Of a DNA stretch of 38,894 nucleotides, positions 10-38,894 are shown piece after piece. The stretch lies in assembly GCA_017941035.1 (NCBI GenBank), contig JAGAXG010000005.1, positions 1-38,894 on the forward strand, given 5' to 3'. Numbering within the stretch: position 1 is the stretch's first letter; each line of letters starts with the position of its first letter. The stretch comes from a bacterium (GTDB lineage Bacteria > Cyanobacteriota > Vampirovibrionia > Gastranaerophilales > Gastranaerophilaceae). A program made the translations under genes and the position numbers. Under the pieces are notes generated by a model that saw nothing but the letters and a program-made list of their open reading frames with translations, made no database searches and had not been told where the DNA came from.

Positions 10-384
10 TTAATCAATACTGCGGATATCATATATTATGTTCTGAATAAAGCCAACTATAAGAAAGAATACAACCATCATTATTGGTAAAAACGCAAAA
101 ATTATACCTAATATCTGGAATATTTTAATGTATTTGTTATTCAAAAATTTTTCGTTGGTTATTCTTTTCCAACTGATAAGTTCAAATACGTATACAAAAA
201 AGGTAATTAAATAAAATAAAATATTTAAACCTAAAATATAAATAAAAATTATTGCTAAAGGTAATCCTGCTTCAGGTTTTAAAATATCAGGGAAAAAGAA
301 TATACAAAGCAAAATAAATACAATCCATCCGCACGTGGATAAACAGTTAAAACTATATCTATCTTTAAATTTATCTAAAAACAT
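10..384 (-). CDS. Small four-helix membrane protein, possible immunity partner of divergent lipase-like gene
   Basis: The protein is about 124 aa from the ATG at 384; an earlier ATG at 402 would add six residues. It has a short basic N-terminus, a GWI motif near residue 20 and about four hydrophobic segments, so an inner-membrane protein is likely. No known family is recognised. The gene is divergent from the lipase-like fragment at 420 with almost no space between the starts. The same arrangement recurs at 38,049-38,423, where the membrane protein shares the layout: basic start, Phe-rich stretch, GWI, then a helix pair, a polar loop with Asn, and a last helix pair. That recurrence suggests a linked function, perhaps protection from a membrane-active partner. 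This is inference. Confidence 0.6.
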   Translation of the reverse strand: MFLDKFKDRYSFNCLSTCGWIVFILLCIFFFPDILKPEAGLPLAIIFIYILGLNILFYLITFFVYVFELISWKRITNEKFLNNKYIKIFQILGIIFAFLPIMMVVFFLIVGFIQNIIYDIRSID

Positions 385-419: not shown

Positions 420-797
420 ATGACAAAAACAGAAACAACAAATTTTGATAATGAAATGAAAGCACTTTCTCAAGGTGTTTACAAAGGAAATGAAAAATCA
501 ATTCCAAAAGATTGGATTAAAGTTTCTGAATTTGACAAAAAGAGCGGATTTCACGGTGAAGCGTTTTACAAAAATGGAAAAGTTGTAATCGCAATGCGAG
601 GAACAGAATTAAATGATGTAGGAGATATATTAACTGATGGAAATATGTATACTTTGAGATTACTTTTACCGGATTATATCAGAGCAATTATGCTAAATTC
701 TATTTTGCCGGAAGTTTTAGACTCTGAATTGAAAAAAGTTACCTGCGAATGGATTACAAAACAAGGTAAAGATTCTATAGAAATCCATTTTGGATAA
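420..797 (+). pseudogene. Chimeric fragment: lipase-class-3-like N-terminus joined to MobC-like C-terminal tail
   Basis: The first ~75 aa resemble the start of lipase class 3 / DUF2974 proteins, including GF-G--Y followed by IAMRGTE and D-L-D at residues ~56-75. The GxSxG nucleophile elbow and the rest of the hydrolase are absent. From about base 658 the reading frame continues into ~44 aa that match, with only about four differences, residues ~43-85 of the MobC-like protein at 34,796 (LPDY-RAIMLNSILPE, then CEWITKQGKDS and IHFG). It stops where the homologue has a GAA codon (TAA at 795-797). A good Shine-Dalgarno (AAGGAG) precedes the ATG, so it may still be translated, but neither parent function should survive. 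Confidence 0.7.
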
Positions 798-810
798 AAA
801 ATAAATCAAA

Positions 811-1428
811 TTATCTTTTATCAGTTGCTTTAATAATATGCCACCCAAATTTTGTTCCTACAGGCTTTGATATCTCACCTATTTTTAAATCAAATGCGAC
901 ATCAGAAAATTGTTGTTCCATTTTTTTTCTAGTAAAAAATCCTAAATCTCCTCCGTTCATGCCGGAAGGACACAAGGAATATCTTTGTGCTGCTTCTTCA
1001 AAAGTTATATCGCCATTTATAATATCTTTTCTGATTTGCACAGCATCTTTTCTTTTTTTTACAAGTATATGACTTGCACGCATTTCACGAACATCAAGAT
1101 TTGGGTTTAAATATGTTGCCAACGCAGAACGTTTTTTCATAGTAGGTGCATCTTTCAGAAGTTGAATTTCTCTTGCTATCGGAGTATCTGGAACTTCAGA
1201 TTTGATTGTAGTTTTCTTCTTTTTAGTTTTTTCTTCATTTACTTTAACTTTTTTTTGTTTCTTCTGTTTTTTTTGTTTTTTTTCTTTTACTTTTTTCTCT
1301 TTTTTATTTACAATAACTTCTTCCTGCTGAACATTATCAGAAGTACCTTTTATTTTCTTTGCAAATGTACAATTAACAGTGGAAGTTATTATTGCAAGAA
1401 TCATAAATACTGTTAATATTAATCTCAT
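811..1428 (-). CDS. Secreted parvulin-type peptidyl-prolyl cis-trans isomerase
   Basis: The 205-aa protein starts with a hydrophobic signal peptide (residues 1-23), followed by a very Lys-rich linker (about 38-75) and a C-terminal rotamase (PpiC/parvulin) domain at about 116-205. Diagnostic motifs are ASHILV, FEEAA--YS, GGDLGFF, a Phe-x-x-Val-Ala-Phe stretch and the terminal GWHIIK. It would assist folding of exported proteins in the periplasm, as SurA/PpiD-type enzymes do. The ATG is preceded by AAGGAG. It is the last gene of the minus-strand group that includes plsY and holAB. The poly-Lys linker may bind envelope polyanions, but this is speculation. The family assignment is firm; the exact substrate is unknown. 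Confidence 0.88.
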   Translation of the reverse strand: MRLILTVFMILAIITSTVNCTFAKKIKGTSDNVQQEEVIVNKKEKKVKEKKQKKQKKQKKVKVNEEKTKKKKTTIKSEVPDTPIAREIQLLKDAPTMKKRSALATYLNPNLDVREMRASHILVKKRKDAVQIRKDIINGDITFEEAAQRYSLCPSGMNGGDLGFFTRKKMEQQFSDVAFDLKIGEISKPVGTKFGWHIIKATDKR

Positions 1429-34440: not shown

Positions 34441-34516
<76 letters not shown>

Positions 34517-34545: not shown

Positions 34546-34741
34546 ATTGGAAGAACGAGAATCTGCAATTATAGGTTTTCAGGGCAGTTGTGATGGGAGT
34601 TTTGTCCTAAATTTGCCTATATTTAGGGCGATAAAAGTAGATTTATAGTGTAGAGATTAGCAAATTTTTGTAATTTATAACTACATATTTTTTGTGTACA
34701 TGTTTGCAGTTCATTATGAATACATGTATTTAATTATTTAA
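34546..34741. other. Gene-free stretch after tRNA-Gln
   Basis: No convincing gene is seen. The stretch contains two ACATGT palindromes: ACATGT at 34,698-34,703 and the longer ATACATGTAT at 34,720-34,729, just upstream of the promoter at 34,742. I find no copy of the tRNA 3' end inside the window to mark an attachment site. Confidence 0.5.
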
Positions 34742-34795: not shown

Positions 34796-35197
34796 ATGTA
34801 TAAAAAACTTATTAAATTTATTAAAAACAATATGGATTCGAAATCGGAACAATTTAGCATTCGTATTCCAAAGTATTTAAAAAATATTTTGATAAAAGGT
34901 TCTAAAACCCAACGATTACCTTTACCTGATTATGTCAGGGCAATTATGTTGAATTCGATTTTGCCTGAAATTTTAGATTCAGAATTAAAAAAAGTGACCT
35001 GTGAATGGATAACAAAACAGGGTAAAGATTCTGTCAAAATCCATTTTGGAGAAAAGATAAAAAGATTACAAGAAATAGCCCAAATAGCATCCTACGCAAT
35101 TGAAGAAACCGAAAAACTTCAACAAAAATTTATTGATATCGAGGTCGAATATTTAAACACTATAAATAGCAGAGCCGAGCAGAGGAATGAGCGATAG
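34796..35197 (+). CDS. MobC/ribbon-helix-helix-like mobilization protein
   Basis: The 133-aa protein has a basic N-terminus, then FSIRIPKYLKNILIKGSK (~21-38), the strand-helix pattern of a ribbon-helix-helix DNA-binding domain, followed by LPLPDYVRAIML (~42-53). The C-terminal half is a probable coiled coil rich in Glu, Lys and Gln. Size and layout fit relaxosome accessory proteins (MobC type), and an oriT-like inverted repeat follows its stop at once. No relaxase gene follows. Residues ~43-85 recur in the chimeric fragment at 420-797. The family call is tentative; a free-standing RHH repressor is the alternative. Confidence 0.6.
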   Translation: MYKKLIKFIKNNMDSKSEQFSIRIPKYLKNILIKGSKTQRLPLPDYVRAIMLNSILPEILDSELKKVTCEWITKQGKDSVKIHFGEKIKRLQEIAQIASYAIEETEKLQQKFIDIEVEYLNTINSRAEQRNER

Positions 35198-35207
35198 CGA
35201 AAGGTGA

Positions 35208-35256
35208 GCAATTATGCCAATAATGATTATTTTGGCTAATTGCGAACGGTTCCGTT
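35208..35256. other. oriT-like inverted repeats
   Basis: A long imperfect inverted repeat (35,208-35,243) pairs GCAATTATGCCAATAAT with ATTATTTTGGCTAATTGC, followed directly by AACGG-TT-CCGTT (35,245-35,256) preceded by GCG. Such paired repeats next to a MobC-type gene are typical of transfer origins of small mobilizable plasmids. No nick site can be assigned. Confidence 0.45.
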
Positions 35257-35277
35257 TTATGCGAGGCGATAGTATTA

Positions 35278-35353: not shown

Positions 35354-35959
35354 ATGCAAAAAATATGGATTTTATTTTTAATATTTTTATTTATAACTTG
35401 TCCTGTTTTGGGTTGTCCTGTAACAAAAAACAAGCCGATTACTCATCCTGACGGAACTATTGAATATGATTTTTCTAAACAATCACAACCAAAAGCAAGT
35501 AAAATATTATATAAATTTGTCTTGAAAGAATTAAATAAAACTCCAAGAGAAGCACAAGATTTTGCAAATATAACCCCCAAAACAGTAAGTGCTTTTGAAA
35601 CCGATTTAAACGGCGACGGTAAAAAAGAAATTATTGGTGTTATTTTTTCAACATATTATTGGGGAACAGCGGGAATTTCTTTATTTATTCTTGAAGAAAA
35701 TAATAATAATGATTATCAAAATATTGCAAAATATATGATTAACATAGAAATTAATATGAGTTTTTATGTTTTACCGTATAAGACAAATGGTTACAAGGAT
35801 ATAAAATACCATAGTTCTATTGCCTTTGATTTTAAACCAATGCAAGCAAAATTTAATGGTAAATATTATTATAATTATGAACAAGAAAAAAAATGCTTAG
35901 AATACTTAAAAGATTTTTCCGAATATGATGTATCCGAAATAACAGGTATAAAAGAATAA
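35354..35959 (+). CDS. Secreted protein with EF-hand-like loop, unknown function
   Basis: The 201-aa protein has a signal sequence (1-20) ending in a Cys-containing stretch (PVLGC, a possible lipobox with Cys21). Residue region ~90-105 carries DLNGDGKKE, a calcium-loop-like DxNxDG motif followed by hydrophobic strands, as in VCBS/FG-GAP or EF-hand-like proteins. Its C-terminus YDVSEITGIKE closely matches an internal segment (YDVSNVTGIKD) of the lytic enzyme encoded next. It starts 46 nt behind the start-stop ATG of repeat copy 1 and lacks its own close Shine-Dalgarno. The role is unknown; an immunity or lipoprotein role is possible. Confidence 0.65.
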   Translation: MQKIWILFLIFLFITCPVLGCPVTKNKPITHPDGTIEYDFSKQSQPKASKILYKFVLKELNKTPREAQDFANITPKTVSAFETDLNGDGKKEIIGVIFSTYYWGTAGISLFILEENNNNDYQNIAKYMINIEINMSFYVLPYKTNGYKDIKYHSSIAFDFKPMQAKFNGKYYYNYEQEKKCLEYLKDFSEYDVSEITGIKE

Positions 35960-36042: not shown

Positions 36043-37140
36043 ATGACAAAAACATTAAATGATTTTTATAATGATTTAGGTGCTAGAGAATCAGGAGGCA
36101 ATTATTCTTCTGTAAATAAATATGGCTATGTTGGTAAATATCAAATGGGTGAAGCTGCAATGGTAGATGCGGGCTATTATAAAAAGCCTTCTGGAAAATA
36201 TAATAATGATTGGTCTGGTCAATTTACAGGCAAAGATGGTGTATATAGTGTTCAAGATTTTCTAAAAAACAAACAGGCACAAGAAAATGCACAAAAAGCA
36301 TTCAAGCAGGCTCAATGGAATCAATTAAAAGCTATTGGGGCTGATAAATATATTGGTAAAGAAATTAATGGAGTAAAAATAACGCAATCGGGCTTATTAG
36401 CTGCAGCCCACCTAAAAGGTCCTGGGGCTGTAAAAGAATATTTACAAAGTAATGGCAAAAATATACCAAAGGATGCTTTTGGTACAAGTGTTGAAAATTA
36501 TATGAAAAAATTTGAAGGATATGATGTCTCAAATGTTACAGGTATAAAAGATTCAAAAACTAATGATAATACTTCTAAAATTGAACCAATTGAGAAAGAA
36601 CCTTTAAATTATAATAAGAATGCTCCGTTTGAATTAAGCATTCAATACAACGATTATCAACAATACAACCTTCCTAATTTAAATGATTTAATGATTAATC
36701 CTATAAATCAACAATCTAATAACCCATGGAATATGATTCCAATGGCTATACCTGAGAGTTTAAGACAACCTTCAGGTGTTCCAACAGGTCAAGCTGCAAA
36801 TTTTGATATCAATCAACTTGCAAATATGTTAGGAATTCAATTACCTGAAGTTCAACCAACAAATAAACCTCAACAACAATTAGGCTTATTTGGTTATACA
36901 AATCCATTAACAGGAAGTAATCACATATATACACGCGATGAAATCGGTGCAATGTCAACAGATGAATATGCTCAAAATGAAAAAGCAATTCATGCCCAAT
37001 TAAACAAAATTGGGATTCCGACCAACGGAGATTTGCAACGAGAAGCAATAACAGGAGGCGGAGTTGTGTATGTAAATTCTTACACTCGTTCTGATGGGAC
37101 AGAAGTTAAAGGGTATTATCGCTCAAGACCAAAATTTTAA
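36043..37140 (+). CDS. Lytic-transglycosylase-like peptidoglycan hydrolase with repeat-type C-terminus
   Basis: In this 365-aa protein, residues ~8-150 form a lysozyme-like domain. RESGGNY (~15-21) holds the probable catalytic Glu16, YGYVGKYQMG resembles the GxxQ-----A block, and LAAAHLKGPGAVKEYL (~126-141) matches the A-Y-aGp-----y motif of SLT folds. A YDVSNVTGIKD segment follows (~163-173), then an Asn/Gln/Pro-rich linker (~185-285), then a tail with VNSYTRSDGTEVKGYYRSRP, a motif of secreted effectors and phage structural proteins. No signal peptide is present, so it would need a special export route or lysis. An LprI-like gene follows; toxin-immunity pairing is an inference. Confidence 0.7.
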   Translation: MTKTLNDFYNDLGARESGGNYSSVNKYGYVGKYQMGEAAMVDAGYYKKPSGKYNNDWSGQFTGKDGVYSVQDFLKNKQAQENAQKAFKQAQWNQLKAIGADKYIGKEINGVKITQSGLLAAAHLKGPGAVKEYLQSNGKNIPKDAFGTSVENYMKKFEGYDVSNVTGIKDSKTNDNTSKIEPIEKEPLNYNKNAPFELSIQYNDYQQYNLPNLNDLMINPINQQSNNPWNMIPMAIPESLRQPSGVPTGQAANFDINQLANMLGIQLPEVQPTNKPQQQLGLFGYTNPLTGSNHIYTRDEIGAMSTDEYAQNEKAIHAQLNKIGIPTNGDLQREAITGGGVVYVNSYTRSDGTEVKGYYRSRPKF

Positions 37141-37316: not shown

Positions 37317-37372
37317 CACAAGCCGAAATATAGGAGGGAAATAGCAATGTAAAAAGTTTGAAAAATTTAATT
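37317..37372 (+). repeat. 56-bp perfect direct repeat, copy 2 (start-stop leader)
   Basis: Identical to 35,278-35,333, with AGGAGGG (37,332-37,338) and ATG-TAA (37,347-37,352). The downstream gene again begins 46 nt after this ATG. Confidence 0.95.
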
Positions 37373-37392
37373 TATATTGGTAAAATAGGTCT

Positions 37393-37965
37393 ATGAAAAA
37401 ATTTATTCTAATATTTATTTTAATATTTTTATTATTTAGTACGCTAATGAGCCTTACATATGCAATAAAATGTAATATGCAAGTTAAAGAATTAAATGCT
37501 GAAATAAGCAAATTAAATAGTACTATTTCTAAAATAAGTTCTGAAAATAAGACACTTGTCAAGAATAAAGATTTTGCACAAAAGCAATATCAAGATTTAA
37601 AATCAACTAAAAAGGAAGCAGAACTTATTGATACAGAAATTCAAGAATGCATGAAATCTTGCAATTATACTACTGCTTGTATGAATAATTGTGTATATGC
37701 TACGATTCCAAAATGGGAAAAAGAAATAGATAAAAATATTAAGTTATTAGAAAAAATAATGAATAATGAACAAATTACACTTTTGCATGATTCTCAAAAT
37801 AAATGGATTGTATACAGAAATGCTCAACAAAAATTGAACAGTGAAACAATTGGTACAATGATGGGTACAATGTATACAAATATCCTGTCATCCGAACAAA
37901 CTTATATAATTAAAAGAAGAGCAAAAGAACTTGAAGGATTATACTACTTTTATTCAAGGAAATAA
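37393..37965 (+). CDS. LprI/DUF1311-like lysozyme inhibitor family protein, membrane anchored
   Basis: The 190-aa protein has an N-terminal membrane segment (~3-25), a coiled coil (~30-75) and a C-terminal region with the DUF1311 (LprI N-terminal) pattern: Cys pairs in ECMKSCNYTTACMNNC (~93-108), Trp then Glu/Asp, a long helix, the Q-W---R pattern in DSQNKWIVYRNA (~137-148), and a final Arg-rich helix RRAKEL. LprI of Mycobacterium inhibits lysozyme. Directly behind the lytic enzyme gene it could protect the producer. Pairing is unproven. No close Shine-Dalgarno precedes its ATG. Confidence 0.75.
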   Translation: MKKFILIFILIFLLFSTLMSLTYAIKCNMQVKELNAEISKLNSTISKISSENKTLVKNKDFAQKQYQDLKSTKKEAELIDTEIQECMKSCNYTTACMNNCVYATIPKWEKEIDKNIKLLEKIMNNEQITLLHDSQNKWIVYRNAQQKLNSETIGTMMGTMYTNILSSEQTYIIKRRAKELEGLYYFYSRK

Positions 37966-38023: not shown

Positions 38024-38092
38024 ATGAAATATGACAAAAATTTAAAAATCAATAAATTTTTAGTGCTATCGATAATAACGAATAAATTATAG
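38024..38092 (+). CDS. Possible 22-aa ORF, likely a gene remnant
   Basis: ATG at 38,024 has a good Shine-Dalgarno (AAGGAG) and reads MKYDKNLKINKFLVLSI before a stop at 38,090. It overlaps the 3' end of the membrane protein gene on the opposite strand. It may be the start of a lost gene. Confidence 0.3.
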   Translation: MKYDKNLKINKFLVLSIITNKL

Positions 38093-38378
38093 ATAATGTA
38101 AAAATAACGGATATAATTAATCCAATAATCCAAATAATACTATAAAACAGATTATTTATAATAAAAGAATTACTTATATTGTGGTTTACAATATGCTCAA
38201 TTAACAAAATTATTGATAGTGCAAATAAAATTACTCCCCAAATTGGTATTAGAAACATAATAAATATTCCTCCACCATCTACTTTTGATATTTGGTAAAA
38301 CTCATACAAAAGTATCCAACCAAAGATGGAAAACAAATGAAATGCAAATTTATGTTTTAAATACTCAATAAATTTCAT
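38049..38378 (-). CDS. Small four-helix membrane protein, second copy of the divergent arrangement
   Basis: The protein is ~109 aa from the ATG at 38,378 (an ATG at 38,423 adds 15 residues and would overlap the divergent gene). Four hydrophobic helices and an early FGWI motif match the layout of the membrane protein at 10-384, which is also divergent from a lipase-like gene. No known family. It may be the membrane partner of the gene at 38,415. Confidence 0.55.
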   Translation of the reverse strand: MKFIEYLKHKFAFHLFSIFGWILLYEFYQISKVDGGGIFIMFLIPIWGVILFALSIILLIEHIVNHNISNSFIINNLFYSIIWIIGLIISVIFTLSIIYSLLSIALKIY

Positions 38379-38414
38379 CGTAGTAATAGTAAAACAAATA
38401 GAAAGGAAATACAA

Positions 38415-38894
38415 ATGAAACATTTCGTCAATATAACAGATACAGAAAAAGAAATTTTATCATACAATTCTTACCACTTGGATAACCCAATAAAATTGGA
38501 TGGTTGGCAAATGGTTTATAAAGAACCTGAAACTAAAAATGGATTCGAAGGGCAAATTTATCAAATGATTCAAGGAAATTTTATCAGGATTATATACAAG
38601 AAATACAATTAAATAAAAATGGGAATTTTGACTTTTCAAAACGCGGGCTTCAGGAACAATTGCGATGGAATCCCAAACAAGCACAAAATTTTTCTGAACT
38701 TGTAAAAGATATAAAAAATGCTAAAAGATTGCCTGATGTACCAAATGAAAAACCTTTGGAAAAACCTGATGTATCGCACTATGAAGTTTACAGGGGAAAA
38801 AATGGTGATCATTATATTGAAGTATTCAATAATGGAGAAAAAAGGTTTTATATTACAAAAGATACCCCTCAAACCGCTACCCATACTACAAGTA
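38415..38894 (+). pseudogene. Frameshifted lipase-like gene, runs off the window
   Basis: The first 65-codon frame (38,415-38,612) has the same N-terminal pattern as the fragment at 420: LS--Y, a Trp about 12 residues later, then NGFEGQIY. Around 38,570-38,590 the coding signal moves to another frame (open from 38,537 to the window end), which reads FYQDYIQEIQLN, then RGLQEQLRWNPKQAQNFSEL and DVSHYEVYRGKNGDHYIEV with plausible protein composition. The RGT motif of the homologue is lost at the junction, so an internal deletion or frameshift is likely. It continues beyond 38,894. Confidence 0.6.

What the first reader, a model, noticed from the sequence alone, without database searches (positions are those of the whole stretch)
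420..797. Chimera of a lipase-like N-terminus and the tail of a mobilization protein
Two unrelated parts are joined in frame at about base 658. The tail aligns without gaps to 34,914-35,050, with only about four amino-acid changes but many synonymous ones, so it is an old paralogue kept under selection before the fusion, not a fresh local copy. It suggests that mobile-element genes and effector-like genes recombine here.
Basis: seen in the sequence. Interest (0 to 1): 0.6.

Follow-up and report, generated by a model that had tools for sequence, protein, structure and literature searches.

The report
Broken toxin gene fused to DNA-binder fragment
The fused gene is a decayed remnant of a mobile toxin-and-immunity cassette in a gut bacterium; the cassette family it came from is widespread, and its toxins share a short tag with a phage-head gene of the host, which suggests, but does not prove, that phage-like particles carry the toxins.

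Summary
The chimera is real. ORF 420-797 is a class-3-lipase-like N-terminus (to about base 648) joined in frame to an internal fragment (652-805) of a ribbon-helix-helix (RHH) gene. Neither half is complete: the lipase lost its GHSLGG nucleophile motif and C-terminus, and the RHH part lost its strand, first helix and C-terminus. Intact parents occur in related Gastranaerophilales, often side by side as one cassette: RHH, small membrane protein, effector. No other genome searched carries the fusion. I read it as a decayed cassette beside an intact immunity-like gene (10-384), not a new gene. A second mosaic of the same kind sits at the window's right end.

The cassettes belong to a larger family. 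Effectors (lipase_3, GH108, tail lysozyme, DUF6973) share a ~72-residue C-terminal domain. Its first 31 residues match the C-terminus of a protein encoded beside the major capsid gene of a conserved, single-copy phage-like head cluster (hhalign E 1.6e-15). The window's RHH cassette also begins with the end sequence of a Mu-like A/B transposon.

Most novel reading not excluded: the domain is a cargo tag that loads toxins into domesticated phage particles. This is inferred; tagged effectors also occur in some genomes lacking that cluster.

The parts
10..384 (-). intact small polytopic membrane protein (124 aa), immunity-like; same divergent place beside lipases in relatives
   Evidence: intact ORF, homologous to L034:5573-5965, L030:5573-5965, L026:7770-8144
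420..648 (+). truncated N-terminal part of a class-3-lipase-like effector; ends before the GHSLGG motif
652..805 (+). internal fragment of a ribbon-helix-helix gene (second RHH helix and following residues only); stop codon at 795-797
811..1428 (-). host peptidyl-prolyl isomerase gene; the 29 other same-genus loci examined show no cassette at this site
34441..34516 (+). tRNA-Gln upstream of the intact RHH cassette
34570..34650 (+). 81-bp sequence matching the left end of the Mu-like A/B transposon of L022, L023 and L037
34796..35197 (+). full RHH gene, paralogue of the chimera's tail; last codons replaced by an interspersed palindromic repeat (35173-35268)
35354..35959 (+). lipoprotein-signal-bearing partner of the lysozyme effector (putative immunity protein)
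   Evidence: MQKIWILFLIFLFITCPVLGC; homologues beside lysozyme effectors
36043..37140 (+). lysozyme-like effector with the shared C-terminal domain at residues 291-362 (DNA 36913-37128)
37393..37965 (+). LprI-like lysozyme-inhibitor gene, preceded by a copy of the RHH-downstream spacer
38049..38423 (-). second immunity-like membrane protein
38415..38612 (+). second lipase-like N-terminal stub, truncated
   Evidence: 64% to L109:12156-13121
38618..38893 (+). internal fragment of another tagged effector, cut by the contig end: second mosaic of the window
   Evidence: 86% to residues 184-274 of L106:3313-4488

Best explanation
ORF 420-797 is a decayed toxin cassette. Shown: its left part is the 5' end of a lipase effector gene, next to an intact divergent membrane-protein gene as in relatives; its right part is a 150-bp internal piece of an RHH gene, the gene that opens such cassettes; after that comes a host gene. 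Inferred: two neighbouring cassettes (immunity-lipase ... RHH-...) recombined by deletion, joining the lipase's codon ~76 to the RHH gene's codon ~40. The in-frame join is chance (one in three), and the stop at 795-797 ends the ORF. The product, if made, has no catalytic serine motif, no RHH fold and no delivery domain, so it is most likely non-functional. The intact gene at 10-384 is then an orphan immunity gene. Broader system: RHH-immunity-effector cassettes have been spread by a Mu-like transposon and recombine with each other. Effectors lack signal peptides while partners are membrane proteins, a lipoprotein or LprI-like inhibitors, which fits antibacterial toxins acting in a target's envelope.
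For: Mosaic map. Intact parents: lipases of 306-319 aa and RHH proteins of 124-146 aa, adjacent with a divergent membrane gene between. Other remnants: 48-aa lipase stub in L025, 5'-truncated RHH with intact membrane gene and no lipase in L028, lipase stub in L109, second mosaic at the window's right end. PPIase and its upstream neighbour are conserved in the genus without a cassette. Longest exact match of the junction region to other own-genome cassette loci is 11-13 bases, so a repeat-driven assembly join is unlikely. Mu-like end at 34570. LprI-like inhibitor beside muramidases (L042).
Against: The ORF keeps a plausible Shine-Dalgarno and start, and unique changes are not enriched for non-synonymous ones (7 syn: 4 non-syn in all), so constraint after fusion is not excluded. 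I found no genome with the exact tandem precursor arrangement. The contig starts at base 1, so the left flank is unseen.
Confidence: 0.82

Rival explanations
1. The fused ORF is a working new protein, for example a regulator or a decoy made from lipase and RHH pieces, kept by selection.
For: In-frame join, open for 125 codons, start region intact, tail amino acids conserved.
Against: Both domains are cut inside their folds; the family-invariant proline at the RHH helix start is lost; no other genome has it; tail conservation predates the fusion.
Confidence: 0.08
2. Assembly artefact: reads from two cassette loci were joined near the contig end.
For: The join lies ~650 bases from a contig end; cassette genes are repeats and other contigs (C32, C9) end inside them.
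Against: No exact match longer than 13 bases between the junction region and the other own-genome loci compared; the lipase N-terminus occurs only here in the genome.
Confidence: 0.05
3. An ancestral natural two-domain protein that relatives have split.
For: The two parents are neighbours in several genomes.
Against: Gene order in relatives is RHH then lipase, the reverse of the fusion, and each parent is complete on its own.
Confidence: 0.02
4. For the wider family: the shared C-terminal domain serves an unknown secretion route, not a phage particle, and its likeness to the head-cluster protein is shared ancestry of a motif only.
For: About 19 of 70 genomes without the first head cluster still have the domain; some arrays have no phage genes nearby (L187-L190); most effectors of this genome lie outside the head cluster.
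Against: Several cluster-lacking genomes carry tagged effectors inside a second, unrelated phage-like cluster; the 31-residue match is strong; tagged genes lie among capsid and terminase genes in L111, L112 and L164.
Confidence: 0.5

Closest known systems
MuF polymorphic toxins of temperate phages (Jamet et al. 2017, PMC5576092)
   Same: Toxins encoded in the packaging module of tailed phages; authors propose loading into the head and delivery on injection
   Different: There the toxin is fused C-terminally to the MuF head protein, mainly in Firmicutes; here toxins are separate proteins, mostly N-terminal, with a small shared C-terminal domain, in Gastranaerophilales, with immunity-like genes and envelope-type activities
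Phage T4 internal proteins with a capsid targeting sequence (PMC3012670)
   Same: Diverse cargo proteins sharing only a short sequence that directs them into the scaffolding core
   Different: Here the shared motif is 31 residues, sits at the C-terminus of the head-cluster protein, and is followed by a second conserved part in effectors; packaging is not shown
Polymorphic toxin/immunity systems (PMC3482391, found)
   Same: Shared delivery-type domain, variable toxin domains, immunity genes, orphan fragments, recombination (general knowledge of these systems)
   Different: Toxin usually at the C-terminus; here usually at the N-terminus (N-terminal tag in L107 and L187-L190)
Gene transfer agents (domesticated prophages)
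   Same: Head cluster in 45 of 46 genomes of the genus, normally one copy at 79-89% capsid identity, next to dxr in the three genomes read
   Different: DNA transfer not tested; podovirus-like with holin and amidase; no paper naming one in this group found in the held library
Mu-like A/B transposons and phages
   Same: Mu transposase C-terminal domain and B-type ATPase beside the cassette in L022, L023, L037
   Different: Compact ~6 kb element without head or tail genes, carrying the toxin cassette

Membership tests
Class-3 lipase (parent of the left part) | Lipase_3 profile match and GxSxG nucleophile motif | tested here: met
   Full-length parent: E 1.5e-7, GHSLGG invariant
Class-3 lipase (the chimera itself) | GxSxG motif present | tested here: not met
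   Homology stops at ~base 648, before GHSLGG
MobC/NikA mobilization protein (tail) | Match above the family cut-off | tested here: not met
   NikA-like 17.3 bits against cut-off 27 for an intact RHH protein
MobC/NikA mobilization protein (tail) | Adjacent relaxase or oriT | tested here: inconclusive
   No relaxase recognised by eye in the cassette neighbourhoods listed, which were not profiled gene by gene; oriT not searched
Polymorphic toxin/immunity system | Shared domain with varied toxin domains | tested here: met
   Lipase_3, GH108, tail lysozyme, DUF6973 with the same domain
Polymorphic toxin/immunity system | Toxicity neutralised by the neighbour gene | not testable with these tools
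   LprI-like inhibitor beside muramidases is suggestive only
MuF toxin | Toxin fused to MuF domain | tested here: not met
   No MuF match in Pfam or PHROGs for the window lysozyme effector and the L022 lipase effector; none in Pfam for the L112 and L106 effectors
Gene transfer agent | Conserved, vertically inherited head cluster without integrase | tested here: inconclusive
   Capsid gene in 45/46 genus genomes, normally one copy; same neighbour (dxr) in three; no integrase noticed in the clusters read; mutually exclusive with a second cluster in 146 genomes (76 / 17 / 0 both)
Gene transfer agent | Packages host DNA | not testable with these tools
   needs particle sequencing
Capsid-targeted cargo | Shared motif between a head-cluster protein and cargo | tested here: met
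   hhalign Prob 98.5, E 1.6e-15 over 31 columns
Capsid-targeted cargo | The head-cluster protein is a scaffold | tested here: inconclusive
   Helical model, mean pLDDT 71; best Foldseek viral hit E 9.7e-4 unnamed, an annotated scaffolding protein third at E 0.17
Capsid-targeted cargo | Cargo found in particles | not testable with these tools
   needs proteomics

The most novel reading that the evidence does not exclude
Gastranaerophilales keep domesticated phage-like particles that are loaded with antibacterial toxins (muramidases, lipases and others) through a C-terminal tag shared with the particle's own scaffold-type protein, and Mu-like transposons spread the toxin-immunity cassettes; the chimera is a wreck of one.
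Probability: 0.3. Interest if true: 0.85.

Novelty: new variant of a known kind. Interest (0 to 1): 0.45.

Why it matters
The fused ORF itself matters little, but it leads to a toxin-immunity family found throughout a gut Gastranaerophilales genus and linked by sequence to a conserved phage-head cluster. If the shared domain is a packaging tag, these bacteria would use inherited phage particles as toxin carriers, which can be tested directly by particle proteomics.

Tried and rejected
A functional chimera (rejected as main reading: both folds broken, no conservation elsewhere). dN/dS as evidence for selection on the chimera (uninformative: signal predates fusion). Assembly artefact (no shared exact k-mer in the loci compared). 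RHH as a mobilization protein (below cut-off, no relaxase noticed). Strict one-to-one link of the shared domain with the first head cluster (rejected: 19 of 70 cluster-lacking genomes have it; association still strong, 60/76 against 19/70, Fisher p 3e-10 without correction for phylogeny). The ~100-bp insert that splits some C-terminal domains looked like a special element but is a common palindromic interspersed repeat of the genus. The Pfam hint to a coronavirus Nsp3 domain (E 0.1) is noise. AlphaFold of the lipase effector was poor (mean pLDDT 48.5). A clear right terminus or target duplication of the Mu-like element was not found.

Full report
WHAT IS THERE. The window is a whole contig (C44, 38,894 bases) of a 1.8 Mb genome. 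Named relatives found through the ORF are mostly rumen and gut genomes, one of them labelled Candidatus Gastranaerophilales. ORF 420-797 encodes 125 aa. A blastn map of bases 1-900 shows three blocks: 2-607 matches immunity-plus-lipase loci, 652-805 matches RHH genes, and from ~811 the host PPIase gene begins. Protein alignments place the join between the lipase part (last shared residues around ...GDILTDGNM) and the RHH part (...LRLLLPDYIRAIMLNS), at bases 648-652.

THE PARENTS. Full-length lipase relatives have 306-319 aa, the motif GHSLGG and a match to Lipase_3 (E 1.5e-7). Full RHH proteins have 124-146 aa; their family match is weak (NikA-like and Arc-like). In L021, L022, L023 and L037 the two genes lie together: RHH, a divergent small membrane gene (two in L021), then the lipase. 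The fused ORF has the parts in reverse order, so a simple read-through or deletion inside one cassette cannot make it. Two cassettes in tandem, with a deletion from the first lipase into the second RHH gene, would. This step is inferred; no genome with the exact precursor was seen, though arrays of such genes exist, for example in this genome's contig C9 (L106).

WHY IT IS A REMNANT. The lipase part ends before the nucleophile motif and lacks the shared C-terminal domain. The RHH part keeps only the second helix and what follows, and ends at a stop codon where relatives read GEKIKRL. No genome among 59 relatives or in a pattern scan of 84,980 species matches both parts in one ORF. Similar wrecks are common: a 48-aa lipase stub in L025, a 5'-truncated RHH gene with an intact membrane gene and no lipase in L028, a stub in L109, and at this window's right end an intact membrane gene (38049-38423), a lipase stub (38415-38612) and an internal fragment of another effector (38618-38893). 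In the window both stubs sit beside an intact membrane gene, as expected for orphan immunity genes.

SELECTION. The tail differs from the window's own RHH gene by 14 synonymous and 5 non-synonymous changes over 45 codons; dN against intact RHH genes is 0.03-0.07 and dS 0.5-1.5, similar to values among RHH genes. This is the past of the RHH family. Changes found only in the fused ORF are 3 syn: 2 non-syn in the tail and 4: 2 in the lipase part, too few to decide. One of the two in the tail removes a proline kept in all ten RHH genes compared.

ARTEFACT CHECK. The longest exact match between 561-760 and the other own-genome cassette loci compared is 11-13 bases, and the lipase N-terminus occurs nowhere else in the genome. 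A repeat-driven misjoin is therefore unlikely, though the contig end is near.

MOBILITY. In L022, L023 and L037 the cassette is carried by a compact ~6 kb element with a Mu-type transposase, a B-type ATPase, a 183-aa protein and a DUF1804/phrog_756-type DNA-binding protein. Its left end, 81 bp, is found directly before the window's intact RHH cassette at 34570-34650 (86% to the end consensus). The window cassette is thus probably a non-autonomous derivative. A matching right end was not identified.

THE EFFECTOR FAMILY. The lipases, the window's lysozyme-like protein (36043-37140), GH108 muramidases and DUF6973 proteins share a ~72-residue C-terminal domain. A search with it gives hits in all 46 genomes of the genus, although in some of them the only hit is the head-cluster protein described below. 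Partner genes are small membrane proteins, a lipoprotein-like protein, or LprI-like lysozyme inhibitors. Effectors read here start without an evident signal peptide (read by eye). This arrangement is what one expects of antibacterial effectors with envelope-localised immunity; function was not tested.

LINK TO PHAGE-LIKE CLUSTERS. In L111, L112 and L164 tagged effectors lie inside a head-gene cluster with amidase, virion protein, major head protein (phrog_267, E 4e-53), holin, head-tail adaptor and both terminase subunits. Its capsid gene is in 45 of 46 genus genomes, normally once, at 79-89% identity, and beside dxr in the three genomes read. The roughly 200-230-aa protein encoded beside the capsid and holin genes ends in a 31-residue motif that matches the first part of the effectors' C-terminal domain (hhalign Prob 98.5, E 1.6e-15). 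Across 146 genomes of the order the capsid and this protein occur together almost without exception. A second, siphovirus-like cluster (major head, major tail, portal, terminase) is found in 17 genomes, none of which has the first, and tagged effectors sit inside it too (L193, L195, L196, L198). The domain is more common with the first cluster (60 of 76) than without (19 of 70; counts read by hand, test, phylogeny not corrected).

WHAT THIS DOES AND DOES NOT SHOW. It shows a sequence and gene-neighbourhood link between the effectors and phage-like head genes. It does not show packaging. The model of the head-cluster protein is helical with a small C-terminal helical unit (mean pLDDT 71); fold searches were inconclusive about a scaffold role. 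Effectors in some genomes without any recognised cluster (L187-L190) remain unexplained.

COMPARISON. MuF toxins (PMC5576092) and T4 internal proteins with a capsid targeting sequence (PMC3012670) are the nearest models for how it might work; by architecture this is neither. The held library returned no paper joining Gastranaerophilales or Melainabacteria to such a system; subscription papers are not covered.

Noticed in passing
window 38049-38893: Second mosaic: intact immunity-like gene, lipase-like stub, and internal fragment of a different tagged effector, cut by the contig end.
   Followed up: partly
window 35173-35268 (-); L106:4453-4558; L111, L115, L116: Palindromic ~100-bp interspersed repeat, found in 29 of 46 genus genomes; it replaces the last RHH codons in the window and splits effector C-terminal domains elsewhere with a stop inside.
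   Followed up: partly
window 37317-37400: Copy of the spacer that normally follows the RHH gene, placed before the LprI-like gene; a possible recombination site between cassettes.
   Followed up: partly
L117/L118 (own genome C21), L119, L120: Conserved podovirus-like head cluster beside dxr, normally one per genome, gene-transfer-agent-like.
   Followed up: yes
L193, L195, L196, L198: A second, siphovirus-like conserved cluster in other genera, never together with the first in 146 genomes.
   Followed up: partly
L187-L190, L107:5322-6089: Proteins with the shared domain at the N-terminus instead of the C-terminus, in L187 in an array with many membrane-protein genes.
   Followed up: no
L106 (own genome C9:1-5130): Array of tagged effectors and LprI-like genes whose first ORF starts at the contig end inside a shared domain; might continue from the window's right end.
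   Followed up: no
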